This document shows positions 7,269 to 62,477 of a stretch of DNA of 64,000 nt, piece after piece (position 1 is the first letter of the stretch; every line of letters starts with the position of its first letter). Source of the stretch: Ceraceosorus guamensis (Eukaryota; Basidiomycota; Exobasidiomycetes; Ceraceosorales; Ceraceosoraceae); assembly GCF_003144195.1 (NCBI RefSeq), contig NW_020290020.1:186001-250000 (forward strand), in the 5' to 3' direction. The notes beneath the pieces were generated by a model. That model searched no databases, had not been told where the DNA came from, and was given only the letters and a program-made list of their open reading frames with translations. The translations under genes were made by a program, and so were the position numbers.

Positions 7269-8663
7269 TTAAGCACGCAGGGAGCGACGTCTAGGGGTGG
7301 GCTTGTCGGCAGGCTTCTCCTCGGTGGGCTGTTCCTCGGTGGGCTGTTCCTCGGTGGGCTTCTGGTCCGAGGGCTTTTGGTCTGCGGGCTTCTGCTCCTC
7401 AGTCTGAGTCTGCTCGGGTTTCTCCGATGCCTTCTCAGGCTGGGGGACCGTAGCCTCGGTGACGGGAGAGCCGTCATCGTCGTCGAGGTCGTCAAAGTCA
7501 TCGCCGAAGGCGTCGACCCAACCAGCAAGGGCACCGCCCTCGGTGACACTGGCGCTCTTTGCCGACGCGTGTTCATTGCCGTTCTCATCCTTCCAAGAGT
7601 CAGCCTTGTTCTTGCTCTTACTTCTGGAGTGTGTGGTTGCGAATGGACGCGGGAAGAACTTGGGGTGCTTCTTCTGTGCCTTCTTGGCTTGTTCACCGTC
7701 CAGGAAACGCCATTGGACTTGGCCAAGGAGGGCGCCTGTTCGGAAGATCGTCAAGAGTAAGATCACCGAAAACGAGCGCGACAGCCAGGAACCGACTTAC
7801 CCCTGTCGACAGCATCAGTGTCGTTTCCAGCGAGGGTCTCGAACAGAGCCTTGGTCTGCGGCAACGCGTGCTTGTTCCGGTCAGTGTAACCCAGTCACCC
7901 ATAGGTGAACGTTTGCACTCACGAGGTAGACATCATTGCAGCCGAAGGTGGCGTTTTCAACAGCACCGCAGGCATCGACAACGCGAGCGAAGGAGCTGAC
8001 GTTGGCCTTGGGGTGGAAGACCTCGACGACGGAGTCACACAAATTGTGACTACGGGTGAGGTTGAGCGTCAGCTCGTGTCACCTAGAGGCCCACCATGCC
8101 AACTCACTAGCCGCTGTTAAGCCATCCTGGCTTGAGGCAGATTCCAATGTCCTTGTCAGCTGCGCAAGGGTGAGAGTCGAGGTGAGCGGAAAAGGTTCTA
8201 GTAGCGCAACGACGTCGAACTCACTGTAGTTCGTGCAGGCTCCCTGACCAGGGCTCAAGAAGAAGACCTTGTCGTCGCTGAGCTTGTAGGTGCTGGCTTT
8301 GCCCGTTTTCCACGTCACCTCAGTAGCAGGGTTCTGGTCTGGCGTGTCGCAAGCGGGCCAAGTCTCGTCACGCTCAGTAGCAGGATCGTCTTGGCCGAGG
8401 GTCTTGCCACCGCTTCCATCGGGGTTGAATCCAGTGGGCTCGGCGTAAGTTTGAGCGGGCTCGTCGCCAGTCTTGGGCTTGTCCTTAGAGTCGGTGGGAG
8501 CCGTCTCGAGGGGCTTGGGCTTGTCCTTAGAGTCGGTGGGGGCCGTCGCGAGAGGCTTGTCCTCAGGCGTGGGCTTGGTCGTTGGGTCCTGGGGGAGCGC
8601 CGAGGCAGCTCCAAGGATGGCCAACAAGGTGGCAATGACGAGGATCTGCTTGCGCGCGAACAT
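7269..8663 (-). CDS. Secreted double-psi beta-barrel (RlpA/expansin-like) protein with Pro/Glu repeat tail
   Basis: Five exons on the minus strand: 8663-8225, 8159-8108, 8049-7923, 7855-7801, 7735-7269 (379 aa). The N-terminus is a signal peptide (hydrophobic stretch IATLLAILGAASA). A Lys/Pro/Asp linker follows with two copies of ATAPTDSKDKPK-like sequence. The next segment is a double-psi beta-barrel: GQGACTNYTDKDIGICLKP, then ARVVDACG, then GCNDVYLTKALFETLA, then LGQVQWRFLD. This order (conserved Cys, V-V-D-x-C, C-x-D-x-x-L, V-x-W) is that of RlpA-like, barwin and expansin-type domains. The tail is basic, then acidic (DDFDDLDDDDG), then four Pro-Glu/Gln repeats (PTEEQ type), ending in RRRSLRA. 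It is probably an extracellular cell-wall-associated or effector-like protein. Exon 4 could instead start at 7870, adding five residues. Confidence 0.8.
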
Positions 8664-11352
8664 TTTGGTCCTGCTGTCGTTATTAGCTGGTAAGCTGGAT
8701 TGAAAGCTGGGGAAGCTGGAGGTCGTAAGAGACGAGTGAGGAAGAAGCGCGTTAGATGGGAAGGGAGAAGTGGAATCAGCGAGCTGGGTGAGGAGAGATA
8801 GCCTGGAATGGTGACTTTCACCTCCGCTTATGTACTTGCGAGCGCTCGAAGCTGTCCGAAGCTGATCGCTCTGACCTCTCCCCGGCAGCGTCAGACACAG
8901 TGCCTGATGCAGTACTCTTGGACGATCTCCGGTGCGGGCTGCTATGCAACAGTCATATGGTTCCTCGCGCAGACCGAGCGAAGAATTCTCGAGCAGACGC
9001 TCGTCTGCCTCCGTCTTCATCTACGACGGCGGTGTCCATTGGCGAGCGAACAATTTGTTGTCTTTGTCCGCACATAAATTAAGATGAAACGCAAAGAGGA
9101 GGCATCATCATCAGCACCTGCCGATCACCACGCAGGTGCCGCGCATTTAAGTCGCCTTTACGACAGAGTCGACAGCGAGGTAAAGAGTCTGCGCCGGGAG
9201 ACACGTACCGCTCACGGTGATTGCACGATTGGCTGTGCGCACGCACCGCACTGGCACAATATCTCTTGGAGATGTGTATCAGAATGCTGGGTACATTCAT
9301 TGAGATGAGACTGATCAGAGCAGACTTGCGCATTGCCGCCACCGGCGAGGAAGGAACAATGCAACGCTCTGAAGGAACATCACGGGCCGCGCGCTGCCCT
9401 GAAATTTGTCGCCATTGCCGATACGCTGCCAGAGACTTTAATTGCCAGGAACAATAACACCGACGGTCTAGACCGACGCCGCGCGCAGCTGTAGGCCGCT
9501 TCAGCCCGAACAGCAGCAGTGACTCTTCTGAAGGGCGACGACTGCAACTTCATATGAATGCACAGCACATGTTGAAACAGACAAGTCACAAGTCTCTCAG
9601 ACCGCGGAGACTCGCCATTGCAACTTCGACATCGACAGACACACATAGAATCAGCTCTTCGATCTATTCGAGTGCAGTGTACGTGTTGCACGCGCCGCCC
9701 CCTCTGTTGTGCTACACCGGCAAGTGGCAATCGTCGTTGGTCCACGGACATTTCGCAAAGACGCGGATCCGATTTGCAGCTCTCCCTCAGCAGCAAGAGT
9801 CGATCGTCGTCATTGGCATTTCACAGCGTGTAAAGCAAAGTCTCCGCTGCGTTCATGAGCAGCAGCAGTGAATGCCAGCATGGTGTGCGGATGTTGTGAG
9901 TGGCGTAGCTGACACCTTCCGGACGGCGACCTTCGCGTGGCGCTGGTCTGGTCGTGCACTTTGGTCGCACATGCGCGCGTCGCAGTGACAGGACTTGGTC
10001 AGCAACAACATGTGCAGACGGTCTCTTAAATTTGATCAGCGTCGGTCGAATTAATAAGCGCTGACAACCGTCGTATTTGAATATATGGTATGTATGTATG
10101 AGTGCCGCGTGCACGCAGAGCGATCCGCGGCCTATAGATCAGGCGAATCAATCACATGGACGAGGCGTTCAGCGGGATGTCGGCAGCGCTCGCATCATTC
10201 GTGATTCGTCACTCTGGGTATATGTCGACTCAGACTCGTGACTGCTGCTTGCTGTACGCTCTGCGAACATCAGCAATGCGACCGACACGCTGTCAGTGGG
10301 TCCGTGCTGATGCGTGAGTGACCCTACATCAGCGTTTCCTCCATTCGGACTCGCTGCATGTGCATTCCGCGTCTTCCGAACATCACGCGCGCAGACTTTG
10401 GCGGGCGGGCGGGTGAGTCGGGGTGACTATGATCCTTCATCACATATATATCCGTAGCATCATCGTAAACATTCACAATCGCCAATATGAATGGCTCGCG
10501 AGCATCGCACAGTCCGTCCTGCGCGTCATGCAGCAATCAGATTTCAGTGCGAGACGGCCAGGCAGGCAACACATGAATGCGCGCATTGCTCACGTCTTCA
10601 CCGAAAGGCGCAAACATCATCGAGGCAAAGTCGCCATGCCGCGGAATTGATCATCAGCTAGGTGAAATGTGCAGTCGTGTATCCACATTTTGATTGCTGC
10701 AGGCGCCTCAATGTCGCAATGGTTCGTGGTCGTGTAGCCAATACGCGATGCGTGATGAATCAGCTTCGAGGCGGGCTCGCCCTCTAGGACGCTATGGTAC
10801 TGGAGACTCCTGTTGGCTCAATATGAACAATGACTTCTTCCCTCAAGAGCACGCAGCAGACTTGATGATGCGGGCTAGCGCAAGTCGTCAAGCATCTCGG
10901 CGCTCTTCACCTTCAGTGGCCCAAAGCACGAGGAATGGCCATGTTGTCACGTTGATGGCGCACAGCAGCTGAACCCTTCTTGTAAGATCGCCGAAGAACG
11001 CACACACCAATGAATAAGAAAAGAGAAAGAAATGATTTGTCATCTAATTGAATAGTGCATTCTAGATATAGGAGATTGGCTAAGGCTACAGTTGAGAGGC
11101 TGACTACGATATAACGACTAGGACAATCGCCAGTGCGAGTGCGGGCAAAGAAGCGAGAGAAGATTGAGGCGGGTCGTGTGTACAATTGTGGGCTGCTTGT
11201 ATTCGAGTAAGGGCATCCTTCGGCCAAGCTCGTCGGAGGGGCTGAAAGTCGCGTCGCATTGAGTATCTGCACTGGGTCCCAACTCATGAGACATGCAGTG
11301 CGATGATAGTGGTAGGCTTTGGGTGCTCGGAGGGTAGAGCAAGATGGGTGAA
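8664..11352. other. Intergenic, 2.7 kb, no supported gene
   Basis: Upstream of the DPBB gene and downstream of the deacetylase gene. Open frames on both strands are short, start at non-ATG codons or have no recognisable protein. Only weak TATA-like sequences are visible near 8825-8835 (minus strand sense, ACATAAG). I find no tRNA-like B-box by eye. Sequence just left of 11353 should be the deacetylase 3' UTR. Confidence 0.45.
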
Positions 11353-19029: not shown

Positions 19030-21181
19030 TCACCCACTGCCTGTAGTTGACTTTGGCCGAGAGTATGCGCTGCCGGCCAACCTAGCAAGGCCCTCCTTAA
19101 CAGGTCCCAGCTCATTCACAACTTCCAGACCGGTGCTCCTCGCCCATACAAAAGCCTCTGCTAGCACCTTTGCTCTAGGATCATCGGGTCCTTCAAACGT
19201 GTCGTCCAGCGTCTCTTGGTCTTGCAGCGTGGCGGTGGGACCAACCGTATTATCGAAACCGTATACCCAGTCTAGCGAGTCGCAAGTCTTGAGCATCGTC
19301 TCGTTTGCTCCCCATCTTTCCGACTCGTAGGCTGCCAACGCGTAAGCAGCGACGCCCAGGTCCGAACCATCCCGAGCTGCCTGGACCAGATGATTGGACA
19401 AACTTCGGGCGTCGGCGATTCCCAGATTGAGTCCTTGGCCTGCTAAAGGATGGGTGGTGTGTGCCGCATCGCCCACGAGCACTACGCGACCTCTGGGCTT
19501 GCTGATGGCTCGATCGCGCGACAAGGCGCTGAAATGTGCTCCTGGCTGCGAGGGTCTTTCGGATACTGAGGAATCGGCCAGAGAGCTAGGCTTCCTCAAT
19601 CCAGCGAGGGATTGCGCTTGCGAAATACCCTTGGACAGAATCTCTGACCACGAGTCGTTGATGTTGAAATTGTACTTTGCGCTGTCCACCCCTTGGCCGT
19701 AGGCAGAGTACCCTTGAGCGTGATTCATTCGCAGCGGAAACGCTGCTACGGAAGAGGCATCCACTTCTTGCACGGCAGGAGGGACCTCGTGGCCGGCGAT
19801 TGGGTCCGGCACGCCAGGCTGGTTCAGCTCTGAAAGGATCAGAGGCGAGAGCCAGCTCCAGTCTCGGTTTGCGTCTCCAGGAGTGGGGACGTTTTGGTGG
19901 GTATGAATGGCTTGCAGAATACTTCGTAGAACAGGCCAGGGTAGACGATGCGCTGCCGTGACGAGCTGAGCAAGAAGTGTGTTGTCGTTGGACGAACGAT
20001 GCATCGCGATGATGGCATTTGCAAGCTCAGTAGGCAAGGTCCACACCATCGAGATTGCTGTTTCGGACACCTGTTGACGAGCGCAAGAAGGTAGATCAGG
20101 ATGCTGGGCGATCAGCACAGCTCGACAAGAGAGCAACTCACAGGCAGCCAAGCGATGGGACCCGTTGGCAAGAACCTCTGCCGCGCAACGCCTTCACTTC
20201 CAACAGCATGCGCCGGATCAATTCTCAATGTGCCTACGACTCCCTTCTTTCCGTAGTCCTTCGAAGCGCTAGATTCTATCCTCGAATACTTTCGCACCGG
20301 CGAGTTGCCGCCGTCAGCGCCTACAAGTAATCTAGCACGAACCGATGCGCCAGAAGAGAGATTGATGGTGGGCCACGCATCTTGTGGTTCTTCTACCTCT
20401 GAAGTAGCAGAGGCTTGAACTGATCGCACAGTCGACGCATGATACTGCAATGATGCCCGATCCAAAGTCTGCGAGAGCGCTTTGCACAGTGCATCAATTT
20501 CCACCATGCTGGCTAGCCGGCCTTCCGTTCCGTGTTCAGACGGAGGTGCGTCAACCCTCATCAATGACCCAGTCAAACCATCCGTCACGCGCATGTTACG
20601 AATCGGATTCATGCGCCTCGGGTCCAGATGATCGGGCAGTGCTCCTAGAGCTGCATGTTTTGAAAATACTTGATGATGAGCTGTGAGAACAGATCTGCAC
20701 AAATGTTGGCGCTCACCTTCCAACCAAGACCGATTTTCTTCGTTCAGACTGATGACCCGATTACTCCACGCTACTCCATCTGCGTATGCAGAGCCATTTC
20801 CAGGCGTCCATTGCTGAATGGCTTCCAAGGGTTTGGGATCGATGAGAGCTAGTCGGGTCTTGGAATGCAAGACACCCTTTCTCGCTGCGCTTTTAAGGGG
20901 GGGGATTTTTGTCAGTCAGAGTAGCAGCGTGATGGGAGAAGCAGAAGAAAGAACTCACTCAGAGAGGAAGCTAGAGCTAGTCCCACCACTCCTGCACCGA
21001 CAATGGCTATGTCCACACTTTGTATATCATCAGAGGCTCTGCTGTATGATGTCGAGAAGGCCTTTGATCTCCACCTATGAGATGCGAGTGATGTGCATGC
21101 GCAGACGTCTGATGTCAAGGCTTGTCGGCCTAGAATCGCTCCAGCGGAGCGCGTGAGGCATCGGACGACAGGAGCGCTCAT
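19030..21181 (-). CDS. COQ6: Ubiquinone biosynthesis monooxygenase COQ6 (mitochondrial, FAD-dependent)
   Basis: Flavoprotein hydroxylase that acts on the ring of the coenzyme Q precursor in the mitochondrial CoQ complex. Four exons: 21181-20959, 20884-20717, 20650-20142, 20070-19030 (646 aa). The N-terminus (MSAPVVRCLTRSAGAILGRQ and on through SHRWRSKAFSTSYSR) is Arg/Ser-rich with no acidic residue, typical of a mitochondrial presequence. FAD motifs are in order: IVGAGVVGLALASSL (GxGxxG), LLVGADGGNSPVRK, and GRVVLVGDAAHTTHPLAGQG (the GD-x-AH-x2-HP-x2-GQG signature of UbiH/COQ6). At 646 aa it is longer than yeast Coq6 because of insertions between motifs. An upstream in-frame GTG at 21259 is not an ATG, so 21181 is the start. 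The stop lies only 180 bp from the chitin synthase stop (convergent). Confidence 0.94.
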
Positions 21182-30398: not shown

Positions 30399-33300
30399 AT
30401 GTGTGCAAATGTGCCGAGTGCTGCACCCTCGAGCGCTTCTGCCAGTGGACAAGGCGGTCGCCAGGGCGTGATGGACGGGGAAGGCACAGCAGCCGAACAG
30501 CCACCTGATGATACAAATTCGTCGCAGACTACGGAGCATCTTGGCCGTATGACCTTACAACATGTCAACAGCGCGGACATGCCAGATGGACTTTCCGCAG
30601 AGCTGGGGCTCAGTGCGGCCGAGCTGGAAGAGACTGCGGCTGCTGTGCTGGCTGCTCAGCAAACAACCTTGTCAGACGAACAACAGGGTGGGCAGATCAT
30701 CGATGCTAGCAAGGCCGGACAACTCAGCACCAGTCCTTTTGGATCTTCATTCCACTCGGCCATGACTGGCTCTTTGCCAAACGTGATCAGCCCCACGGGC
30801 GAGACGAATCTTTCAGCCATAGCTGACCCTGCGACGGATGGCCACTCGCTTAGTGCATCGCACCATTCGAAGAAGCTTCAGCCTGAGCGCCATATGTGGT
30901 CCAAGGAAGAAACTCAAGCATTGGTAGATGGTTGTAACGCTGTGAGTGTCGCGTGTCCCGGTGCTGTGAGATTCAAGGCTAACGTTCGAGAGGTTGTCTG
31001 GTCAGCACGGCGTCGGCAATTGGAAGGCGATACTTTCAGACCCCAAATTCAGCGGACGCTTTGCTGGTCGTTCTGCCGGAGATCTCAAGGACAGATTTCG
31101 CACGTATTTTCCAGATGCGTATCACGACATGTATCCCAATGCCAAGACGCATACAAGCAAGGCGGTCCGCAGCAAAGCTGCAGACGGAACGAGTATCTTC
31201 GAAAAGGGAAAGACGAAGGAACGTCGACCCTTTAGCGCTGCTGAGGACGAGGTGCTGAAACGCGGCTATGCACAGCATGGCTCTCACTGGGCTACGATTG
31301 CTCGCGACGCGGTTTTCGAAGGGCGGAGAAAATCAACAGATCTCAGAGATCGTTTCCGCAACGCATTCCCCGAGCTGTACGAGCAAGCGGGCTACAAGCC
31401 TCGGTCCAAGTCTGGGAAGAAAGACAGGCGCCCGAGTCATGGAGCCCTTCATTCCGATTCGAGCATGTCCATGAGCATATCGGCGGCACTTGAGCAAGCA
31501 AATGGAGATGGTTCGGATGCGATGCGCGCCACTCGCGTTGCACCTCCCCCCAGCGACACTAGCGCTACATCGCACTCTCAGTGCGCGAGCGGGGATGTCA
31601 GCCATAGCGAATTGGAGACGAGCGAGGGAGAGATGAGCGACGCGTGGGAGAGACCTGCGGGCGAGCCTGTCCTCGCACGAAGACTGATGGATCAACATCG
31701 CGCACAGCAAGAGCAGCGTCGTCAACAGGAGGAGCAACGCGCAGCTGTTAGTCGATCTTCGTCGTTCAACGACGGCTCGTCTCGTCTTGGATCGGGTCTT
31801 CGCTCAGTCTCACGGGACACTGGCGCCCTTCAAGTCCAGCAAAGGGAGCATGCCGCAAACCCAAATGCTCCTTCTTCCAGCAGCAGTAGCAGTGCTAGCG
31901 GTATGAATCCGAATGTGCAACCACTTCGACCAGACGGTGGTCTACGACGAACGCAAAGCTCAAAGCGCGCAAACCCAAAGATCAGCCATTTTGAGGGCAT
32001 GCCCTCATCGACTGCTCTGCAGCAGCAGCAGCGCACTCATCAACATCATCACCAACAGCGCTTGATTCAAGAACAAAAGTATCCCCAGCCCATCCCGCAT
32101 TATTTTGGCACCAGATCGCAAGACCCCAACACGGCTCAAATGCACCCTTCTTCCAACGAGGTTCCTACGAGTAGACCTCCTTTGGAGCATAGCTTGAGCT
32201 CTGGACATGCGCCTCAGTATGCCTGGCAAGGCGAAAGCGAGGGGCAGCCTTCGGCTTCATCATCATCGTTGGATGAGATGGACTTGGACCAGTTGAATGC
32301 TCTGCTCGGTCAGCCTTCTTCCTCAACAACGCATTTGAGTAATGAGCGATTTAACGGGCCACAAGGAGATGCTATGGACGTCGACGCTCCCACGGTAGCC
32401 AGTTCGACAGCCGCGGCGCCAGCATCTACCATAAGCGACGCTTCAGCAAACTCTACTGGCAGCGATCTTTCATCTTTGCTCACCAGCGCTGACTTGATGC
32501 AGCTAGCTGCCAGCAGTGGTTCGAGCACGCTAGGCACGAGTCCTAGCAAGAATGGCTTCTCGATAGAGTCCTTCCAGGATCTCCTCGATCCTGTGTTGCC
32601 ACCGAGCACATCACTCTCGGAATGGGCTGCTTCGGCTGCCTCTTGGCACCCCGTCTCTTCCTCTAGCGTCAACTCTGGCACAGCCTCGGCACCCAGCCAG
32701 ACTGAGCATAGCGCGTGGGCGGGCGATTTGCTGCATCGCGGTAGCGGTAACACGTCGATCGACACTACCATGCAGCAGCCTCAGCAACTTCAACAGAGCT
32801 ACATGACCCAGGCGCAAGGGGCGGCCGCGAATGATCCTGCGACCTTGCACGCGCAATTTGAAGATCAGCGACAGCAACAATTTGGGCCTCCTAGCATGAG
32901 ATCCTCTCTTGAAGCTGACTTTCAACGCACTGATACCCAGCAAACAGCTACAGACAACGGACTTCGCACGCATCGTTTTGATGCTTCTGTGGCTGCGCCG
33001 CATTCGGTCGCTCAAAGCGTTACCTCGACTCCCTCGGTACAGGAGCTCGTCAATCGCTCCGCTTCAAGCCGTCATAGCGGCCAGCAGGCGAACGCTGCCG
33101 CCAATTTCCAGCATCAGTTGCCATTCCTACCCGCGGACCTCACGTCTAGCCACGCCATGCAGTCGCCATACCGTATCAACCCTTACTACCCGGCTGACGA
33201 CCTCAGCCTCACTAGTCTTGGCAGTCAGACGCTTTTCCCGAGCTTGGTCGGAGAAGCGCCTGGGCACAGGCGCAGGCGATCCACAGACACGCTGCGTCAG

Positions 33301-34455
33301 AATTTCAGCTATGCTCAACTCGCAGTTGCGTTCGAGCCTACGCCACTCGACTTGCCGGGCTACACGCCTCAGCAGCAGTCTGACGAAGGAATCGAAGAAG
33401 AGCCAGAGAGCGAGTCGGCAGATTTCGACGAGTCGTCGGGCTCCGTTCGGCGCCCTTTTCATGGGCAGTCTGCGTCCTTTTCTGGGACCTGGGATCGCAA
33501 CGTCACCATACAACCGCGTGCCACACGGCAGCACGCTTCGGCTGACGAAAGCACTGTCGAAGACTCATTTGGTGGTCGTCATCTGAGCGCTTTTGAGATC
33601 GCTGCCGCCTTTGCCGCACAGCATGGAAACACCACGGCCTTCGACAGCGCAGCCGAGGCGGATGCATCTTCTATTGGGCCGTATGCAGAGTCCCTGCCGG
33701 ATCTTGGCCATCCCTCAAGTAGCTCGACGTTTGACGAAATCAGCCCGTTTGGTCTTCCTCAAACGTCGTACGACGACCTCGACCTGCCATCTTTTCTGGG
33801 TCGCTCTCCAGCGCTCAATCATGCAGTGGCACCACACGCGCGGGATGCTGCTGCTGGCGATTCTGCAGATGCGCCTTCGCAGTGGGTACAGAATCACGGT
33901 CTTGGAGGACCTTCAAGCGGCGCGCTGCAATCTGGCAGAGCGGCGAGCGAGTCACAGATGGACATTGAGTCCAATCGACAAGGCTCTTGGCAGAAGGCTT
34001 GGTCGGACGTTGGCGATGCGGCAAGCGCGGATCCCTCGGCGTTTCAGCGGACGTTAGCAACGCAAGAAGGAGCGCGAGATCGTGTTGCGGCTCACTTTGC
34101 CGATCTAGAGCGCTTCGACAACTCGTCGCAGAGATGGCTTGCCGATCGACCGGATGCCTCGCTGCTTCGTTCCATCTCTACCGATGGTCATCCTGGCCCC
34201 ATCACGAGCACGGCTAGCGAAGCTGTACTTCCAGCAATGTACACGGCCGGAGACTTGGACAGGCTGGAGCATCTTTATTTGGAAGGTCTGCACCCTGTCA
34301 GTTCGTCGACTTCACAAGGTGCTGCGAGGACGCCAGGCAATTGGTCGAGCGAATGGAGCAATCAGTCGGCCAACTTCTCGAACAGCGATGCCCAGACTGA
34401 CCACGCGAATGGTGGCGCGAACTCATCCACCGGAGCGAGCCACAATGGTCGATGA
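30399..34455 (+). CDS. Tay1/Teb1-like double-Myb protein (putative duplex telomere-repeat-binding factor)
   Basis: Nuclear DNA-binding protein. Two exons: 30399-30941 and 30991-34455 (1335 aa); the 49-nt intron falls inside the first Myb repeat. Myb 1 (about residues 165-225): MWSKEETQALVDGCNA, then GQHGVGNWKAILSD, then DLKDRFRTYFPDAY. Myb 2 (about residues 258-312): RRPFSAAEDEVLKRGYAQHG, SHWATIARDAVF, then STDLRDRFRNAFPELYEQ. Both repeats end in the D-L-(K/R)-D-R-F-R-(T/N)-x-F-P signature (telobox-like helix 3) typical of Tay1 of Yarrowia and smut fungi and Teb1 of fission yeast. These proteins bind TTAGGG-like repeats and, in some cases, promoters. The remaining 1000 residues are Ser/Gln/Ala-rich and predicted disordered. 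The call rests on the Myb pair; telomeric versus transcriptional role is inference. Confidence 0.85.
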
Positions 34456-40216: not shown

Positions 40217-41659
40217 TCACTGACTGTCTGAAACCCCGCCCGGATGCTCCCAGGGCTTTGGAGGCTGTTTGAGGTGGGATTCAGAAGGTGTGGCCCGGTT
40301 GATCTGTGCACACAGATCCCAGCGTAAGCAAGCTTGCGAGGTACACGAGCGAATGGTGACCAAGAGACGGTCCTAGCCCCACGACTCACTTGGAGAGGTA
40401 TGTCTTTGATGCCTGGAATTTTGTCAGCTTGGCCTGTGCTTATGAGTTCCACAATCGCGTCAAAGCTGGCAGGATGCTGAGGTGCTTGCTGTTCCCTGGC
40501 CAGGTCCGCGCTGCCTAGCGTCAAGTTTGAAATGGCGCTCGTCGCCGCGGCGAGTGCTGGCTGCTCCGAATCCAATACTCGGGCGCATAGGCCCGCCACT
40601 TCTTTGATCAGCTCAGCTTGAGCGGGTGCAGCGTCCACTTTGTGATTTGCCCCTTGCAAGACCTTTGCCTTGAAGCGGGTGTCCTTGACGATGCGGTTCC
40701 ATTTGTCTACGATTACCGATGCTGGGTAGGGGTCGAGCATGTACTCGCTATTACGTCACGAGCGCCGTCAAGACCCGTCGTCGGAATACAGCTCGCGTCA
40801 GAGGCGTTCAGCAGAATACTCACTCTTCAGAGCCGCACAAAGCCAGCAATTCAGGGTCACCGGGAGCGATGATGCCTTCGGGAGAAGCCCAATCTTTGGC
40901 AAGCCCATCCAAAGCGTTCCTGAAGATGTCTATCACGTCCTTCTCCTCAAAGTCTCCACTGAACAAGTCATCGTCTCCTCCTTTGCCGTTGAGTGACCAG
41001 TACCGGTAGGCGGTCTGAGGAGGTTCCAGGATAGCCGACTCATTGGTGCCTCGAGGTTCGCCCGAGTGTCTGTTCACCGCTCTAGCAGGTCTGGGCGCCA
41101 AAGGGGCTTTGTAAGACAATAGTGTGCTGCCTTTGCCCGCTTGTACAAGACTTGTAGCTTCTTTGAGATTCTCCACTTCCTCGGCACCTGCCGTCTTGTC
41201 GAAGTACAGCCTGTCGGAACAGGGAGCTTGGATGATCGCTCCTTGCACCTTGACATCCGCTCCCCGGTTCCCAAGGAGGTATGTAATGACATCCTGACAG
41301 CCCGTGCTGTGTCCCAACAAAAAGATTGCCTTTTTCTTACTTGCTGCTCTAAGCTGATCAACAACTGCCGCAATCTCCCTCGCATCAGCTTCCAGACTTC
41401 CGTAATTGAATCCTCCAAGGTTGCTAGACAGTTGAGGTAGCACGACGGATATTCCCAGCTTGCTCAGCGCTTCGACTAGCCCTTCTGTGTACGGTAGACT
41501 TCCGATTGTATCGGTCAAGCCCGGTATGAGAACGATGGAATGCGTCGCACCAGGATCCGAGTCGAGCAGCGTCAGCTTTGGAGATCCGTACGTGCTCAGA
41601 GACCATCTAACTTCGTGCGAATGGCCTGCCGGAGTGGACTCGCTAGATCCGAACGACAT
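40217..41659 (-). CDS. DUF1749/SidJ-like alpha/beta hydrolase fused to a C-terminal KPWE (PEX39-type) motif
   Basis: Three exons: 41659-40824, 40747-40390, 40303-40217 (426 aa). Residues about 20-300 are an alpha/beta hydrolase of the DUF1749 family, which includes the siderophore esterase SidJ: IVLIPGLTDTIGSLPY (oxyanion loop), then FLLGHSTGCQDVITYLLG with the nucleophile Ser in G-H-S-T-G, then CGSEDEYMLDPYP (acid residue region) and GANHKVD (catalytic His). After a linker, the same exon runs without a stop into FDAIVELISTGQADKIPGIK and DIPLQ, then exon 3 gives INRATPSESHLKQPPKPWE. The pattern F-x3-V-x-L-I-x-TG-x-IPGI-x2-IP...KPWE is that of the KPWE domain of peroxisomal proteins (PEX14-like KPWE domain, PEX39). 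The start at 41659 is the first ATG; an upstream GTG at 41689 is not used. The fusion suggests a link to peroxisomes. Confidence 0.85.
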
Positions 41660-42366
41660 CCTTTCTGATTTTTGGAAGCGCTTCTGCACACGCTGGAATG
41701 CAGAGTCTGCGGAGTAGTCACGAGTGTCAAGGATGGTGAGGTCAGCCCAGATGAGGAAAGAGGTAGCGTTCGATGCTAGCTACACCACTGATGGTGTCGT
41801 CGGTTGGTGGAAGACGCAACGGCAAGATCGCGCGCCATGCGCTTCACGCGCATGGGTGATGATGGCGCTCGGACCACCTATCATGGGGCGTGTACGACGC
41901 CGCACAGATCAGTAGAGCAATCGAATCACGCACATCGAGGGTCAGCTCGTGATTGAGAAACATAGGTGTGGACCGCTGCTTGTCATTTCGAACAAGCAGT
42001 TGGTAGATATTTACTATCGGTGACAATCTGGGGTAGTAGTAGTAGGAGGCTCGGAAAGGCAGCGAACGTTGAAGTGAATACAGGATGATTTGTTCAGCTA
42101 GCGATCGAATCTTAGAGAGTGTGTTGATTGTTGGGACCTGTCCAGATTGATGAGACATTGGAGCGTCCGCGACTAACAAGGACCATGGCCCGACATCATG
42201 AGTCGAGAAGCAACTGCAGTGACACAGGCCAAGTGAGGAAGAACGTTGTGGACGCTCAAAAAGAGTGAGTGGTTGATGCGGGGTCGCCAAGCGTACGATC
42301 GCTGGGTATAGGTACAGAAGTGCCATTCACATCTGATGTAGCTACCATCTGAAGGGCAGAGCAGCT
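41660..42366. other. Intergenic, 0.7 kb, no supported gene
   Basis: Promoter side of the hydrolase gene and 3' side of the seven-transmembrane gene, both on the minus strand. A 160-codon minus-strand open frame at 41844-42326 has no recognisable protein and overlaps expected UTR. Confidence 0.45.
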
Positions 42367-50603: not shown

Positions 50604-52359
50604 TCAGACCAGACCATCATACAAGCTGCAAAGGCATCGAAGGGTCAGTGAAAGCTCCTTGGAGAGTGAAAGTACCGGCTCGGCTCACCTCAACGCCTGG
50701 ATGATGGTCGGATCGGATTTGGAGCCTTCTTTGAATTCTTCAAATGTCACTGTATAAAGGCAGACCAAGTGAGCAAGCGGGTCGACCTGTCATCCGCTCC
50801 CAGACTTCCAGCAACAACTCACACTGCGCATTCTTGTCTCGGTCCATCATACGGAAGATTTTGTCGACGCGCTGTTGAGCAGTATTTGATGGAGGCGAGC
50901 TTAGTACGGCGAAGCCCGCATCAAGTCGTTCCTCGACTCACTTTCTCCGGCGTGTCCTCATCCTCCGGCAGCTTGACCATCTGACCGGTCATCTTGTAGA
51001 TGCTCCTCACAATAGCTGCGAAGGCGAAGAGGGAGAGAGAGATCAGTCATCGTACAGCGCAACTCAAAGAGCTTTCAGCCTTCCTTTCGAGGAGACCGAG
51101 CGACGCGCAACCGGCTGGAGAGCAAAGGCGCAGGCCCGCAAGGAGGTCGTCGTTCTCTACCAGCCCATGAAGGCTGGCAGCTTGTGCACATGCAGACAAT
51201 CAGTGATGCTGCCCACCTCTACTCACTCAGCATTTCATCGTAGCTGAGGCAGAAGAGGTCGGCACAAAGAACCGTGGAGTCAGCCGCTGCTTCGGATGCC
51301 AGGCAGGATGGCAAAGTCGAGCGCTCACGTGATTGTGCCATCACCATCGATGTCATACAACTGGAAAGCCCACCTCAGCTTCTCGTCCAGCCTGCCCCGA
51401 GAAGTGACAGACAGTGCACAGATGACTTTGGAGCGCCAAGGCAAAGCGAATGAGTGAAGCGGCACCAAGAGCAACGACAAAGGCTGCCAGGCTTGAGCTC
51501 ACACTCTTTAAAGTCGATTGTGCCGTTTCCATTCTCGTCAAAGACGTTGAAGACGAACTCGGCGAATGTCGAGGGGTCACCGAACGCAAAGAATGATCTG
51601 CGCGCGATAGAGGGGCAGAGTGGGTAAGTGAAGAGCGAGCTCTGCCTGAGAAAGATGAGAGCGAGCAAGCGTTTGCCAGGACGTTCGAGCAGTGTTCGGG
51701 TCGAAGCCACCCTTTGCGCAAGGCCCAATGATGCCTGAACATCTGCATCCACCATGTTCACAAAGGCTGTGGCGCAGCATAAGCAGATGTGTGTCATCGC
51801 GTTCCGCCCTATGCCGCGACACTTCCACCTCCATGCGTTGCAGGGAAAATGCGCTGCTTGTGGGCCTCGACTCCAATACGCTGCCACTGAATGAGCGACG
51901 CACTTGTACACTTTGATGAACTCCTGCTTGTCCAGCACGCCAGATGGGCAATCCTTCAAGAAGCCCTTGTACCTATTGACGTTCGAGTGATGAGATCAGG
52001 TCAGATCTGGGCCTAGCTCGTCATGAGTCGATTTAGCATCTGCAAAGGACGCACCATTGCTGGAGCTCTTTGCGGTCGACTGCGGAGGGTAATGGAGCGC
52101 ATAGCGTGAGCTTACAATCCTCGATTAGGAATCACTTCGCCATTTGATCGCCCCGAGCATCCGACCAGCTGTGCGTAGCGTGATCCGGCGCTCGTCTCAC
52201 GCCCAGCGACTTTCATCTCTCCGACAGCAGACCAGCTGCGAGCACACTGGGACCACTCGCGCTCTTCCCGTCTGCCTGCTCATCTTGATACGCACAGTAA
52301 GTGCTCTTTTGCAAGTCGGCCAGTTGTTCCGGGGTGAGCTTGGACTGGTTCTTTCCCAT
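50604..52359 (-). CDS. Frequenin / neuronal calcium sensor NCS-1
   Basis: N-myristoylated calcium sensor that activates the Golgi PI4-kinase Pik1 in fungi. Ten exons: 52359-52296, 52079-52055, 51972-51904, 51597-51503, 51425-51329, 51243-51227 (17 nt), 51015-50942, 50871-50823, 50749-50689, 50625-50604, summing to exactly 190 aa, the usual NCS-1 length. Gly-2 in MGKNQSKL is the myristoylation site. EF-hand 1 is degenerate (C-P-S-G, no calcium ligands), as in all members. EF-2 [14 protein letters not shown]-3 [14 protein letters not shown]-4 is DRDKNAQLTFEE, where the usual Gly at loop position 6 is Ala, so its calcium affinity may be altered. The C-terminus SLYDGLV is the conserved hydrophobic tail. 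Protein conservation fixes all splice sites. Confidence 0.97.
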
Positions 52360-55923: not shown

Positions 55924-58900
55924 ATGAGGCTGATAGCGGTACTAGTCGCACTTGCATTCTGCCAGCTTACAGCTGCAGTGCTGTTCGGTGAGAGCGGGGG
56001 ACCTGTCGCCTCTGCGCACAATGCTTTGACGCGAGGCAAACAAATGCTGGCCGCTTGGGTGCGTAGGTCATTGGTAATGGTCTTGAAGCTTCGATTCTTC
56101 GCGTTGACATGCGAATTACTCTTCGCTTAGATTCATCCTTCGAAAGGCGTCGCACTTCGCAAAGGAGCGCCCAGAAACCAGAGCCCAATTTCCCTGTTGG
56201 GCTGCATGACCTGTGATACAGGCGTCGTCGACCCGAAGAGCAACAAGCATATCAGGGAGTCGTCCAAAAAGCTCGACGCAGAGGCAAATTCATGGGCAAA
56301 CAGAGCCAGCGCTTCCGACGAGCACTCGCTCTACCTTTATGGCAGCCGCACAGGATCTCGAAAGAGCAGCACCTCTTCGTCGCCCCACTCGAGGCGTAGA
56401 GATGGATCCGGCAAGGGTGTAGGACGCACTGATCATCTCCTGCTTGCTCAGAGTCGGCCAGGAAGTCCGATTCCCTCCAGGCATGATCCGCACATCAACA
56501 ACATTTTCCTTGGCAACTCTTATTGGGGACGGCAGTCCCTCGCAACACCACCAAAATCAGTATGGGGTAGTCCTGGCTCTCCTACTGGGCCGTTGAGGAA
56601 CGAAGTTGGCAAGCAGGTTTTCCGTAGCAAGAGCTTCAAGCCAGCGACATCCTTTTCATTCCAGCCCGAAGTGTCAAGCTTGTCCCACGACGCACATGAG
56701 CCAGGTTCAACCTCTCCAGATCTCACTCACTTCAAACGGTCCGGTCGCAAGAAAACGGACCTCACCCCGCTCAACGTTCCGAAGCGCTCGGAGGAGATTC
56801 AGCGAAGACGAGTACAGATCGAGGCGATCATGCCGATCAGCACTGAGATGACCTTGATGAAACGCTCGAGTCATGGACAAGTAGCCTTTATGATGCAAAA
56901 CAACTTGCAACGCCGACTGTTGAAGAGCGGCTATGCCAAGGCGAAGAAGGTAAGCGACGTTCGCTGCCGAGTAGCTTCGGCTCCCAGAGAAGCAGTGCTG
57001 ACTTGCCTCTCTTCTTGCGCAGGTCTTGCGAGCCGTCGGCAACATGGGCTGCACTGGATGCGGAAAAGCGTGGTCTCCACAGCCGTCGGTTGCCGATCAC
57101 TACTGGCGACTCGGCTCCGCCTCCTTCTCAGACGCAACACGCTCCCGACACTCGCGATCAGTATCATTTTCCGACATGTCCACGTCGCTCAAGGAGTCCT
57201 CCTTGACGCCCAAGGACTTACCTCATCTACGCAACGGTGGTCAGATTTCGCCGTCCCGTTTGATGCAAGAGTCTCCACCGCGTCAGCCCCCCAATGAGAA
57301 TTTTGACGATCCAGAACAGTGGAATCGAGTGTGGAAGTGGATCCCTCGTCCACCGGCTGCCAAGCCTGCGGAACCAGTTCCGAAAACAGTTGTCGAAAGT
57401 ATCCCGCTGCCACTGCTGCCGCCACGCGCACCACCTAAAAAATTCAAGCGAACTTCGTCTGCTGCGGGCAGCGCCAGTACGGTCCATCCTACGACAAAAA
57501 CCCCGCCTTCTTCCATCTCTGACCTCATCAAGCGAGGCCTGACCGAGAACCTATTTAAGGTTCGTCGTCGTCAAGACTGCTCGACCTCCAAGTAAGCGCT
57601 GACTGACATGCCCACGCTGTATCAATGCAGCTCTGCAAAGGATGCACCCGCCCTTCGGCCGCGGAAGAGTCTAGCCTTGCCCCACTGAGTGCAGCGCATT
57701 CCGACAGTCCTGCTTTCAGAAGATTGACCAGCGAGCACATGTCAAGAATGCAGCATTGGACCGAGCACGGTAGACAGCCCCTGCGTGAGCGACCGCTGCA
57801 AACAGAAACAGAAGACCTTCGCCTTTCAGAGGTGCCAGGACCGATGAGCATGCGCGCAAAGAAGACTGCCATCGCTGCGTGGGCTCGTAGGCAGGGCAAG
57901 CTTCCTAGACTTGCTGGCGGCGGAACTCAGGAAAGACCCTGGGCGGAGGAGAATCTGGGCCACGATCGTCCAGTCTTTGATCCATGGCTTCTATCGCCGG
58001 AAAGACGCCCGCCCGAGCTCGAACCTGGTCACACCAGCCAGCAGCACAGCTTTGACACGCCTCGTGCACTATCTCCAACTCGCCTGAGTGATGCTGGCGA
58101 GGGGTCGCGAGGCGGAGAAGCTTCACGAGTGAGTATCGATCAGAGCTAGCCCTGCAGCCGTCGTGGCGATGACGGTGCGTTCTTTGAGGACAACAGCCAA
58201 CACTGGCTATAAGTCAGGCAAGGCCGCCATAGTTGATGCAAATGAGCGGTAGAATTTCGGCAACGAGGGCTAGTTCCCTGCTTACCTTCATCCTTTCATC
58301 GTTCTGCTTCGTTTTCTGCTCAGCACAAGACCAATGACCCATCAGCAGCTTCTGTCAGATCTTCTACGCTCTCGGGCCAGAACTCCTTGACCGCACTTGA
58401 AGCAGCCTTCCGGAAAGCCGAAGGCCGCGCAAACAAATCGCCCGAAAAAGGCACCAGGGCAACGAGTGCTAGGCGTCTCGCAGAGCGGACGCGCGATCAC
58501 AGACTTGCAAAGCGTGACCTGCGCTCGGACCAGGTGTTGCAAAAGCGCTTCTTGGGCAAGGTGAGCAAGCTAATGTTGCGCAAATAGCAGCCTGCAAGGA
58601 CTAACAACGAATTCGTTCGACAGCTTTTCTCGTGCTTTGGAGGATGCAAGAGCAGCAGTCCCAAATTTCCGAAAATCCCTGCAGGAGCGACAGACGCAGA
58701 AGTCAAAAAGTTTGCGGGATCCCTTCTGGGCAAGACCTCGACCATCTCTGGCACTCGTCACCGAACGCATCGACGTGCTCATAGCCTACAAATCTTGCAA
58801 AAGCGTCTCTCAAGAAGCGTGAGTCTTGATCTTAGTCTTTTACGTACCTTGCCCAAGACTGACATGTCGTAGCCTTGCACACCAGCTTTTCGCATGCTTC

Positions 58901-61900
58901 GGACTTTGCAAAGCTCCATTGCCGCCTAGGATGCCCCAAATTCGGACGACCGAAGCAGAGCTTCTCAAAGTTGCTGCGGATCGCAAGCCACATGGCGCCA
59001 TCTCAAGCAGCCATCTGGCTCATGCTGAGCGTCGCGACATTGTTCACATTCTCCACAGGCGCTTCCTTAAGGCTGTGAGTCTTCCAAACGACCAAAGACG
59101 ATGCGGGTCACTAGATTACTGACGGGCAGTTATGATTCGTAACCTGCACGATAGTTATTTTCCTGCTTCATGTGCAAAAGCGGCGACAGCCCCAGATTTC
59201 CAAGCATTCCAAAAGGCGCAACCGACGCGGATGTGAAGAGAATCGCAGGGTCCATGCTGGGCAAGACTTCGACGATCTCCGGTACTCGTCATCGCACGCA
59301 TCGTAGAGGAATCCAGGTCAATGAACTCGAAGTCACCGCGGACCGCGCTGAAAAGCGTGGCGAAAATGGTCAGGTGGGTATCTAGTCAGCGGTATCAGTT
59401 CCGAGATGGATAGAAGAGATCGAGCCCGTTGGCTGCGCACTGAGCGACGAAGAAGGACAGCTGAAGGGGAGATGATTGTGGCTAGACCGCCAAAGAGAGT
59501 CAGCCTTTCTGCGGCAAACGAAATCGCCAAGCGAACGACTGTTTCCGAATGAGATGTGTGCCTACGTGTGCGCCAACCCGCCCCCTGAGACTTGATCTTC
59601 CACCTTTCAGACTCCAATCTTACAGCGTGCTCATTCTGACTTTCTGCAAAGACGAATGAGGGTGAGTGCTGTAGGGCTAGTCAGCTTGCAGCCTGGCCAC
59701 GCAGGACTGACTGGTGCGGGTCTCTGAGCTGCCGAGCAGGTCCCAAATGTTCCAGATGATCTGGAAGCAGAGGCCGAGAAACGGGCGCGTCTTGTTACCA
59801 ACAACTCTTCATTGAGTCGACTCTTCCGCTCTGCATCATCTGCGGCCCAGGATGGTGCCAGCACGCCGCAGCAGGTCGAGCATGCCGTCCGCAAAAGTGA
59901 AAGTGGCACTTCTATTCATCATGCTACCCGCAGCACTAGTTCTTTGGAAAATGTCCACAATGACAATGGCCAGAGCTACGGCTTATGGAGATCCTTGAGC
60001 ACGCGGCTATTTGGAGGTGTGAGTGCGGAGACGTGCCGCAGCCATATTGATTCTCCTCTGAGGACTATCACACCCAGCCTCCCCAGAACCGACGTCTTCG
60101 ATCGATAGGGGTCACACCTACGGGAGAGAGACAGGCTAGACGGCAAGCAGCTTTGAAGGACAGACGAGCAGCCATCGCCCAAAGTCGGAGAGGAGCAAAC
60201 ATCCATCCACAAACTCACACTCCACATACAACATCGACGATCGCTTCGTCGTCTACTTTAGAGGACTCGACGCCAGCAGCTCAGGGCACTTATGCTCGTC
60301 AGCACGTAGCTGAGCGTATCAGTCTGGACAGCAGCGTGCCGCGACGCCGTCTTCATGACGAACGAGGTGACTCTCACATTGATCGGTTCACCTCTCGATC
60401 TCGGTATGAAAACGAGCTCTCTGGGCACACTAAAATTGATGAGACCATGCAGCGCTCCCGAGCAGGAGGGGTGAGCGTCAAGGACCTGACTGATCAGGAT
60501 GGCGAAACTGCTTCGCATATGGCTGATAGACGACTGGAGCGCCGCAGTCAACACATTTGGTCGACTCTGGAGCGCCGCTTCACCCCAGATGAGGTAGAGC
60601 GGCTTCGACGAATGACCTCTGGCATCAACCGCCTTGGAGAGTCTAGCAGCTCCAGTATGACTCGAAGCCGCAGCAGCGCTCAAGGCCAAAATTACGACGG
60701 CCACACCTCGCCTGCTGGCTCCCTAACCCGTGAGTCGCCGGCACCCTCGTTCCCGGGTAATGGGTTAGACATCTTGACACGTGCTGGAAGGTGACGTGTG
60801 TATCTCGATGCAGTACGGCTGATCCACCTCGATGATCATTACAGGAATTCATCAGAACTCGTATCCCTCGAGGTTGCAGACAACGACGCAAGCATACACA
60901 CCGGGACTAGGTTGGTTTGCGCACCGTACTTCTTCGGCCACCGCACGAGATAGACGGCACGGTGCAGTCGCGGCCGCCGTCGGGGCCCAAGTCGATCGCA
61001 GCCGTCAGCAAGAGCTCGACCGCTTGAACCACCTGGACAGCGGCTTCAGTCACCCTGATCACGAGTATCCTCGCTTCCGCTCGGATGCTGACATTGCCGC
61101 GCTGCATGGCTGGCATCACACTCCCTCAACGTCTCGCAGCCCCATCGCACCTGACAGTCCGCAGTCAGGTCGCCGAGCGAGCTCAAGCTCTACGCCTTAC
61201 GAGCGCTTGATGGCGTCGCATGGTGGCAGGCACGGGGAGCCCCACACTGTCTCTACATCCAGCACTCAGACCGAGAGTGGTAATTTGCGGCCGAACCGTG
61301 GAGCAAGCCCGGGCTCAGGCTCCACGCCTTACGAGCGCTTGATGGCTTCTTATGGTGAGAGCAGCGTCCATAGCATTCATCGCGGACAAGAACAGCTTCG
61401 AGAGAATGCACGCCCCGTCACGCGACATGGTCGTCCCAAAATGGACTTGGATAGTCACGACGTGCCGCATCATCAGGAGGAAGATGATGGTCGAATGGAA
61501 GGACAACTCCATCCGGCGGCTTGGCGTGTCGACGAAATGACTGGCGATAGCGCCAACGACATTCATCACGAGATGGCTCATGGTGTCCGTGCCGAACGTC
61601 ATCCCGACTTTGTCCATAAGCCAGGAGCGACTGGCTGGGCACTTTCAAAGCATCGTCTGAGCAGGCGAAACAGCGGCGATGATATTGCTCGTGTCAAAGG
61701 TGAAGATGGACGCAGGGACTTCTCGTCGTCTCAAGCGAAGCTTGCGCTCGAAAAGAGGGGGCTTTTGGGGGAGCTATTTGGGTGCTTCCGCAGCAGCTCT
61801 GGATGCGGCGTAGGATCGTACTCGAGAAAAGCCCAACAGCCACACACACCTGGACCATCAGAGCCAGGCTTTCCCAAGCCAGCAGAATGGGCAAGGGCCG

Positions 61901-62477
61901 AATTACATACCGGCGACGTTCCCAGGAGACTCGAGCCCCAAAAGTCGTTCGACGTCAAGGGTCTGCCGATGTATGCCAAGCTACAGCAGTGGCGAGCTGA
62001 AGAGGTGAGTCACTAGCTTGAGGTGAATAGTGAATGTTCGTTGCGCTATGTACTCACATTCTCTCGCGTGAAAAATTCCAGAGCGCTGCATTAGGCAAGG
62101 GCAAAGCGACCATGCCTAGCTCGTCACACAGCCCTCCCAGGGCCAGTCTCGCAGAAGCGTCGCATGGCGAGTGGAGGGATGATCCGGACACGATGATAGT
62201 GCACAAAGATTCTTTGCGTGAGCGCACCAGCACTTCCCAGAGACGCGCTCTGCCGTCTGAACAGGCAGGATCATCCGCACCGACGCATACTCGACGACCC
62301 TCTTTCGATCCCGACTCCATCTATATTCACAAGTCTATGCTGCCAGAGGTGCCTCATAACCTCGCGGGAGATCCTAGAATGATGCTGCACTCTGGATCTC
62401 TGCGCCAGCTTCAGGGATCTTCGAGCGGGCGTCGAAGTTTCAGCCGATCTTCATCCCGATCAAGCCGAGGAGGTTGA
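55924..62477 (+). CDS. Large secreted modular protein built from repeated cysteine-motif exons (novel, function unknown)
   Basis: Thirteen exons: 55924-56058, 56131-56949, 57023-57559, 57631-58128, 58324-58560, 58624-58818, 58886-59074, 59155-59373, 59611-59661, 59740-60018, 60087-60729, 60845-62004, 62082-62477; 1785 aa. Exon 1 encodes a signal peptide (MRLIAVLVALAFCQLTAA). All introns except the eleventh are phase 0. A module recurs: LLGCMTC (exon 2), NMGCTGCGK (3), LFK-LCKGCTRP (3/4 junction), LFSCFGGCK (6), LFACFGLCK (7), LFSCFMCK (8), LFGCFRSSSGC (12). Exons 6 and 8 also share IP-x-GATDA-x-VK, then LGKTSTISGTRHRTHRR. Exon ends carry LQ-(K/R)-R-x-L (LQRRLL, LQKRFL, LQKRLS, LHRRFL). Exon 12 has two STPYERLMAS copies; exon 13 has two DPD-(T/S)-x2-(V/I)HK copies. 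The spacers are Ser/Pro/His-rich. Many dibasic sites would allow Kex2 cleavage. I know no such family. An effector, repellent-like or cell-surface role is inference. Confidence 0.8.

What the first reader, a model, noticed from the sequence alone, without database searches (positions are those of the whole stretch)
55924..62477. Undescribed secreted protein assembled from repeated, phase-0 cysteine exons
Seen: a signal-peptide exon, then 12 exons joined almost only in phase 0, with at least seven variants of an L-F-x-C-F-x(1,2)-C-K motif, LQ-(K/R)-R-x-L exon ends and many dibasic sites. Known: some fungal secreted repeat proteins (for example the Rep1 repellent of Ustilago and Kex2-processed repeat proteins) are cut into peptides at Lys-Arg. 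Inference: this is a new modular precursor, perhaps an effector or surface protein. Its spacing and module type do not match any family I know.
Basis: partly seen in the sequence, partly recalled or inferred. Interest (0 to 1): 0.88.

Follow-up and report, generated by a model that had tools for sequence, protein, structure and literature searches.

The report
Exon-built secreted cysteine-peptide precursor in fungus
A fungal gene appears to encode a long secreted protein built partly from duplicated exons, several of which start with a short hydrophobic cysteine motif just after a likely protease cutting site, so it may be chopped into several small secreted peptides of unknown function.

Summary
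The gene at 55924-62477 is intact and most likely single: 13 exons, 1788 aa, a signal-peptide-like start, 11 of 12 introns in phase 0. Strictly, exons 6-8 carry L-F-x-C-F-x(1,2)-C-K; four further cysteine pairs are looser. The 14 cysteines after exon 1 form seven close pairs, six within 25 residues of an exon start; an L-x-(K/R)-R site (Kex2-preferred) lies 8-21 residues before each of the six later pairs. Exons 6 and 8 are old duplicates with saturated synonymous change and constrained protein. A 343-aa gene model on another contig has the same plan, but protein searches do not link the two genes. A kexin is present. The exons tested match no known family; no database relative was found, though fungal coverage is thin. 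Best reading: an exon-modular, Kex2-processed precursor of cysteine-headed peptides, like Kex2-processed repeat proteins (KEPs) but failing the published 15% repeat rule. Cleavage, disulfides and function are inferred.

The parts
55924..56058 (+). Exon 1: signal-peptide-like segment (MRLIAVLVALAFCQLTAA...), 45 aa; an alternative donor at 55988 gives a shorter exon
   Evidence: CACC-ATG context read directly
56131..56949 (+). Exon 2, phase 0; cysteine pair CMTC at 56203-56214; ends LQRR(56905-56916)LLKSGYAKAKK|
57023..57559 (+). Exon 3; pair CTGC at 57050-57061; ends LIKR(57524-57535)GLTENLFK|
   Evidence: donor GTTCGT departs from the usual GTRAGT
57631..58128 (+). Exon 4; begins LCKGC (pair 57634-57645)
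58324..58560 (+). Exon 5; no cysteine, no Met; ends LQKR(58537-58548)FLGK|
58624..58818 (+). Exon 6: full module LFSCFGGCK...GKTSTISGTRHRTHRR...LQKR(58795-58806)LSRS|
58886..59074 (+). Exon 7: diverged module LFACFGLCK...LHRR(59051-59062)FLKA|
59155..59373 (+). Exon 8: module LFSCFMCK...GKTSTISGTRHRTHRR...AEKRGENGQ|, old duplicate of exon 6
59611..59661 (+). Exon 9: 17 aa, TPILQRAHSDFLQRR(LQRR 59644-59655)MR|
59740..60018 (+). Exon 10, phase 0, no cysteine
60078..60729 (+). Exon 11, Arg/Ser-rich, no cysteine, ends in phase 1
60845..62004 (+). Exon 12: internal LEKR(61747-61758)GLLGELFGCF-x5-C (pair 61783-61806) without an intron at the head
62082..62477 (+). Exon 13, Ser/Arg-rich C-terminus and stop

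Best explanation
A single gene encodes a secreted precursor, mostly low-complexity in sequence. Shown in sequence: exons joined almost only in phase 0, of which 6-8 are duplicates; six exons (2, 3, 4, 6, 7, 8) carry a close cysteine pair within 25 residues of their start; and an L-x-(K/R)-R site, usually in an upstream exon, lies 8-21 residues before each of the six later pairs. Inferred: after signal-peptide removal, kexin in the Golgi cuts after these sites and releases peptides that start FLGKLFSCFGGCK, LSRSLFACFGLCK, FLKALFSCFMCK, GLTENLFKLCKGC, GLLGELFGCF and so on, with longer Ser/Arg/His-rich tails. Each pair then forms a small disulfide loop or cross-links peptides, giving hydrophobic, mostly cationic peptides that act at the cell surface or on membranes. 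Exon duplication in phase 0 is how peptides were added. A second gene model elsewhere in the genome follows the same plan.
For: One open frame over 13 exons, 11 of 12 introns phase 0. No in-frame Met between mid-exon 4 and exon 7, so exons 5-6 cannot start a gene of their own (first model). Exon 6/8: pS 0.81 (saturated) against pN 0.28 over 64 codons; 20 of 24 differences in the 31-codon core fall at third positions. Module similarity z scores against shuffles: 39.6 (6/8), 10.5 (6/7), 8.6 (7/8). Cys pairing 0 of 300,000; six of seven pairs within 25 aa of an exon start, P 0.0001. P4 Leu at 12 of 44 [KR]R, binomial P 7e-5, against 0 of 13 at [KR]K and 7 of 148 at other xR. Six of six later pairs preceded by L-x-[KR]-R within 22 aa: 0 of 200,000 random placements (1 of 200,000), still P 0.00025 when exons 6-8 count once. 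Second gene model at C5 with the same layout. One kexin match. The nine heads of both genes are hydrophobic: mean 0.21 against -0.21, 0 of 20,000 random sets as high; 7 of 9 carry positive charge. Kex2 prefers Leu at P4 (PMC8528282, part 1 of 3 of the text read).
Against: No transcript or peptide evidence. KR is not enriched beyond composition. Hydrophobic moment is unremarkable, 1 of 9 heads in the top 5%, so an amphipathic helix is not supported. Other [KR]R sites fall inside the modules (e.g. THRR, DVKR), so a clean set of peptides is not predicted. Exons 5, 9, 10, 11 and 13 have no cysteine and exon 12's pair is internal. The tests were designed after seeing the pattern. The two genes do not find each other by protein search even at E 10. 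The head patterns alone are at chance level elsewhere in the genome.
Confidence: 0.55

Rival explanations
1. An uncleaved secreted or wall-associated low-complexity protein: the cysteine heads cross-link chains or bind a partner, and basic pairs are mostly a by-product of Arg-rich composition.
For: KR count is no more than composition predicts; most of the protein is S/R/H-rich; few similar repeats for its length.
Against: L-x-[KR]-R 12 against 2.2 expected and its spacing before cysteine pairs; a kexin is present.
Confidence: 0.25
2. A typical KEP or Rep1/Hum3-like repellent precursor, simply diverged.
For: Signal-like exon, Kex2-type sites between repeats, hydrophobic segments; Rep1 and Hum3 have 31-55 aa amphipathic repeats with Kex2 sites (PMC4617103, passages).
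Against: Only three clear repeats (3 x 33 / 1788 = 5.5%, below the 15% rule of PMC6339444); cysteine pairs and exon-bounded units; no Pfam match over cut-off in the 10 exons scanned.
Confidence: 0.1
3. The gene model is wrong: two or more genes, or exon 1 not joined, so the protein is partly or wholly not secreted (for example an intracellular Arg/Ser-rich protein with S-acylated cysteine heads).
For: No RNA data; introns 4 and 8 are long (195, 237 nt); first junction ambiguous; codon bias weak.
Against: No in-frame Met for exons 5-6; the other 10 introns are 59-115 nt; the second gene model also pairs a signal-like exon with such heads.
Confidence: 0.1

Closest known systems
Fungal Kex2-processed repeat proteins (KEPs; PMC6339444, PMC7329392)
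   Same: Signal-like segment, several peptide-sized units bounded by KR/RR
   Different: Long protein with few, diverged units separated by variable stretches; fails the 15% rule; units bounded by phase-0 introns; cysteine pair at each head
Ustilago maydis Rep1 and Hum3 repellents (PMC4617103, passages)
   Same: Kex2-separated peptide units with hydrophobic segments
   Different: 12 and 17 tandem repeats of 31-55 aa there, three clear repeats here; no hydrophobin match in the 10 exons scanned
Kex2-processed pro-domain effectors (PMC8528282)
   Same: L-x-x-R type cut sites in secreted fungal proteins
   Different: One N-terminal pro-domain is removed there; multiple units here; no evidence of an effector role
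Two-cysteine alpha-type pheromone precursors (PMC6339444, passages)
   Same: Repeated peptides with a close cysteine pair after Kex2 sites; the second gene's CVGQGC recalls the printed RFCHLPGQGCSK
   Different: Heads differ from one another; cysteine-bearing KR/RR fragments are 33-154 aa; only a short look-alike

Membership tests
KEP (Le Marquer 2019) | Signal peptide | tested here: met
   By proxy only: hydrophobic peak of the first 22 aa reached by 1 of 1208 ATG-started 22-mers; SignalP not available
KEP (Le Marquer 2019) | No transmembrane segment | tested here: met
   By proxy: highest internal 19-aa Kyte-Doolittle mean 1.14; TMHMM not available
KEP (Le Marquer 2019) | At least four fragments when cut at KR/RR | tested here: met
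   45 fragments (first model)
KEP (Le Marquer 2019) | At least three similar fragments | tested here: met
   Exons 6, 7, 8 similar by alignment and each yields a cysteine fragment; FIMO not run
KEP (Le Marquer 2019) | Repeats occupy at least 15% of the protein (smallest motif x number / length) | tested here: not met
   3 x 33 / 1788 = 5.5%; even 7 x 33 gives 12.9% (fragments, rule)
KEP (Umemura 2020) | At least 3 tandem repeats of 8 aa or more, none over 100 aa, between Kex2 sites, by 40-aa seed scoring | not tested
   Rule read, algorithm not reimplemented
Rep1/Hum3 repellents | A dozen or more amphipathic 31-55 aa tandem repeats | tested here: not met
   Three clear repeats; hydrophobic moment in the top 5% for 1 of 9 heads
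Ustiloxin-type RiPP precursor | UstYa (DUF3328) gene nearby | tested here: inconclusive
   0 matches in own genome, but the 14 control genomes were silent too
Any Pfam/NCBIfam/PDB family | Profile or sequence match | tested here: not met
   Pfam: only Cgr1 at E 0.16, below cut-off, exons 2-8 and 11-13 given, 10 of 13; NCBIfam: only below cut-off, same 10; PDB: none at E 1 for exon 6

The most novel reading that the evidence does not exclude
A new, lineage-restricted class of fungal peptide precursor whose unit of evolution is a phase-0 exon. The exon boundary sits a few residues after a Kex2 site and just before a hydrophobic cysteine-pair head, so duplicating or moving one exon adds a new secreted peptide in frame. 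At least two unlinked genes of one genome use it.
Probability: 0.37. Interest if true: 0.75.

Novelty: new variant of a known kind. Interest (0 to 1): 0.55.

Why it matters
Fungal Kex2 precursors have been surveyed as clustered, near-identical repeats. If exon-bounded, diverged peptide units exist, a KEP screen with the 15% rule misses them. Exon duplication in phase 0 would then be a testable route by which fungi make new secreted peptides.

Tried and rejected
Pattern and search matches set aside after reading their context, with names given by eye: C17 (PhoD-like gene), C36 (SET-like) and C122 (short-chain-dehydrogenase-like), C16 (inside a long open frame, no head context seen), C3 (lipase-like; E 0.025 to exon 12). 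Two further weak matches to exon 2, C6 (E 0.07) and C20 (E 0.26), were not read by eye, only scanned (no hit). The head patterns are at chance level: F-x-C-F-x-x-C-K 4 matches against 2 in the reversed control; acceptor + L-F-x-C-F 5 (three in this gene) against 15; acceptor + F-x-C-F-x-x-C 2 against 3. So the second gene rests on its context, not on the pattern. A combined 'acceptor + cysteine head + upstream basic exon end' scan, designed after seeing both genes, gave 6 hits in 113,901 bases, all six in the two genes, and 0 in 48,741 further bases (12 loci, some overlapping). Ten random resamples gave 0-3 (mean 1.7), so it is not specific enough for a genome-wide count. First junction 55988/56146 dropped for 56059/56130. 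Intron-intron comparison of 7 introns gave z -1.2 to 4.7 over 21 pairs (highest intron 6 with 8): no clear recent duplication. The bootstrap of omega was usable in only 181 of 1000 samples because of saturation. A 5.8S search found nothing, so the species is unidentified. Amphipathic-helix idea not supported.

Full report
What was checked. I rebuilt the gene from the sequence and tested splice sites and frames by script. Thirteen exons from 55924 to 62477 join without a stop into 1788 residues. The first junction has two workable solutions. I prefer donor GTGCGT at 56059 with an acceptor TTAG ending at 56130 (72 nt, phase 0), because the other (55988/56146) needs a weak AAAG acceptor and a 159-nt intron, and because the second gene model has a first exon of nearly the same length (44 against 45 aa). 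With it 11 of 12 introns are phase 0. If half of introns were phase 0 (an assumption, not measured in this genome) that would have P 0.003. Introns 4 and 8 are long; intron 8 overlaps an open frame in another frame (59352-59552), so an unseen exon is possible.

Is it coding and one gene? Long open frames, 12 GT-AG introns of which 10 are 59-115 nt, and a CTRAY branch-like site in 7 of 12 introns (first model) agree. Codon bias is weak. The best evidence is the duplicate pair. Exon 6 and exon 8 keep 27 of 31 core residues while 20 of 24 nucleotide differences are at third positions. Over 64 codons synonymous differences are saturated (0.81) and nonsynonymous are 0.28. The modules are therefore old, translated in this frame and under purifying selection. 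Exon 7 is a more distant copy (z 10.5 and 8.6). Exons 5-6 hold no in-frame Met, so they must be spliced to upstream exons.

The repeated plan. After exon 1 there are 14 cysteines in seven close pairs (four CxxC, two CxxxC, one Cx6C). Five start within 10 and six within 25 residues of an exon start. In exon 12 the seventh head follows LEKR without an intron. An L-x-[KR]-R site ends 21, 10, 8, 8, 8 and 9 residues before the second to seventh pair; the first pair has none and would follow the signal peptide. Leucine at P4 is found at 12 of 44 [KR]R sites, 0 of 13 [KR]K sites and 7 of 148 other xR positions. This matches the printed Kex2 preference for P4 Leu (PMC8528282, part 1 of 3 of the text read). 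Against this, KR pairs as such are no more frequent than composition predicts, and several [KR]R sites lie inside modules. All these tests were chosen after seeing the pattern.

A second gene. A DNA pattern for F-x-C-F-x-x-C-K gave four matches in the 23.8-Mb genome (2 in the reversed control): two in this gene, one chance-like (C17) and one at C5. The C5 place gives a five-exon model of 343 aa: a signal-like exon MLSVGQIRFLFLLPLAAVCVAAEPS, a 14-aa exon ending RRGLGGLLKK, an exon starting FSCFGFCKSSPTSP and ending LVSRGFGSGFLKK, and an exon starting LACVGQGCHG. Its four cysteines after the signal segment are the two exon heads, and three of its four introns are phase 0. FSCFG-x-CKSS matches exon 6 at 9 of 10 residues, 4 of the 5 positions that the pattern left free. 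Against kinship: protein searches of the own genome with the second gene and with exons 1-8 each found only their own gene at E 10, so the link is by head and plan, not by overall similarity. Exon 6 alone found itself and exon 8 only; exon 12 and exon 2 alone found their own gene plus weak matches at C3, C6 and C20, E 0.025 to 0.26. Exons 9, 10, 11 and 13 were not searched.

Machinery and relatives. One P_proprotein match is present, in a frame matching solved kexin at 2e-124. UstYa was not found, but that search is inconclusive. Pfam and NCBIfam gave no match over cut-off for the 10 exons submitted of 13, and Pfam none for two exons of the second gene. Two searches of 5.8 billion proteins found no relative at E 0.01 (4010 candidates; only the 7999 best candidates scored). 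A control with the neighbouring Fab1-type gene found five proteins, best 52% identity (also capped), so fungi seem thinly covered and absence says little.

How it most likely works. A secreted precursor is cut by kexin after L-x-(K/R)-R, releasing several peptides with a hydrophobic, mostly cationic start and a cysteine pair. Head segments are more hydrophobic than the rest (0 of 20,000 random sets as high) but not notably amphipathic. Surface activity, membrane action or cross-linking are possible; I cannot choose between them from sequence. My estimates: single secreted gene 0.85, Kex2 cutting at these sites 0.65, surface- or membrane-active peptides 0.25.

Comparison with print. KEP definitions were read in PMC6339444 (sections 6 and 24) and PMC7329392 (section 13); abstracts, outlines and some passages of both were seen. 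[quoted passage not shown] In the main texts of these surveys 'exon' and 'intron' do not occur; in PMC9769878 'exon' does not and 'intron' occurs once (passages only). Searches showed no paper on exon-bounded peptide units in fungal Kex2 precursors. They listed 5 of 5, 10 of 38, 15 of 29, 15 of 39 and 12 of 14 papers; most were seen only as listings, and most subscription journals are not held. Rep1 and Hum3 were compared from passages of PMC4617103.

Verdict. Species, transcripts and peptides are the missing evidence.

Noticed in passing
window 59374-59610: Intron 8 is 237 nt and overlaps an Arg-rich open frame (59352-59552) in another frame; it may hold an unannotated exon with non-consensus splice sites.
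   Followed up: partly
window 61180-61360: Exon 12 holds a duplicated block STPYERLMASHGG / STPYERLMASYGE, a second, internal repeat unrelated to the cysteine heads.
   Followed up: no
L015:5262-5300: The second gene's head C-V-G-Q-G-C recalls the printed two-cysteine alpha-pheromone motif RFCHLPGQGCSK (PMC6339444, passage); probably a short look-alike.
   Followed up: no
window 1-52000: Neighbours: Fab1/PIKfyve-type FYVE protein (2289-4736 -), chitin synthase start (15034 +), FAD_binding_3 (19030-20193 -), Myb protein (30970-34455 +), DUF1749 hydrolase (40820-41779 -); by eye a calcium-sensor-like exon near 51375-51995 -.
   Followed up: partly
window 8079-9020 (-): ORF with a signal-like stretch MFARKQILVIATLLAILGAASALPQ followed by a twice-repeated APTDSKDKPK segment, no Pfam match: another possible secreted repeat protein.
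   Followed up: no
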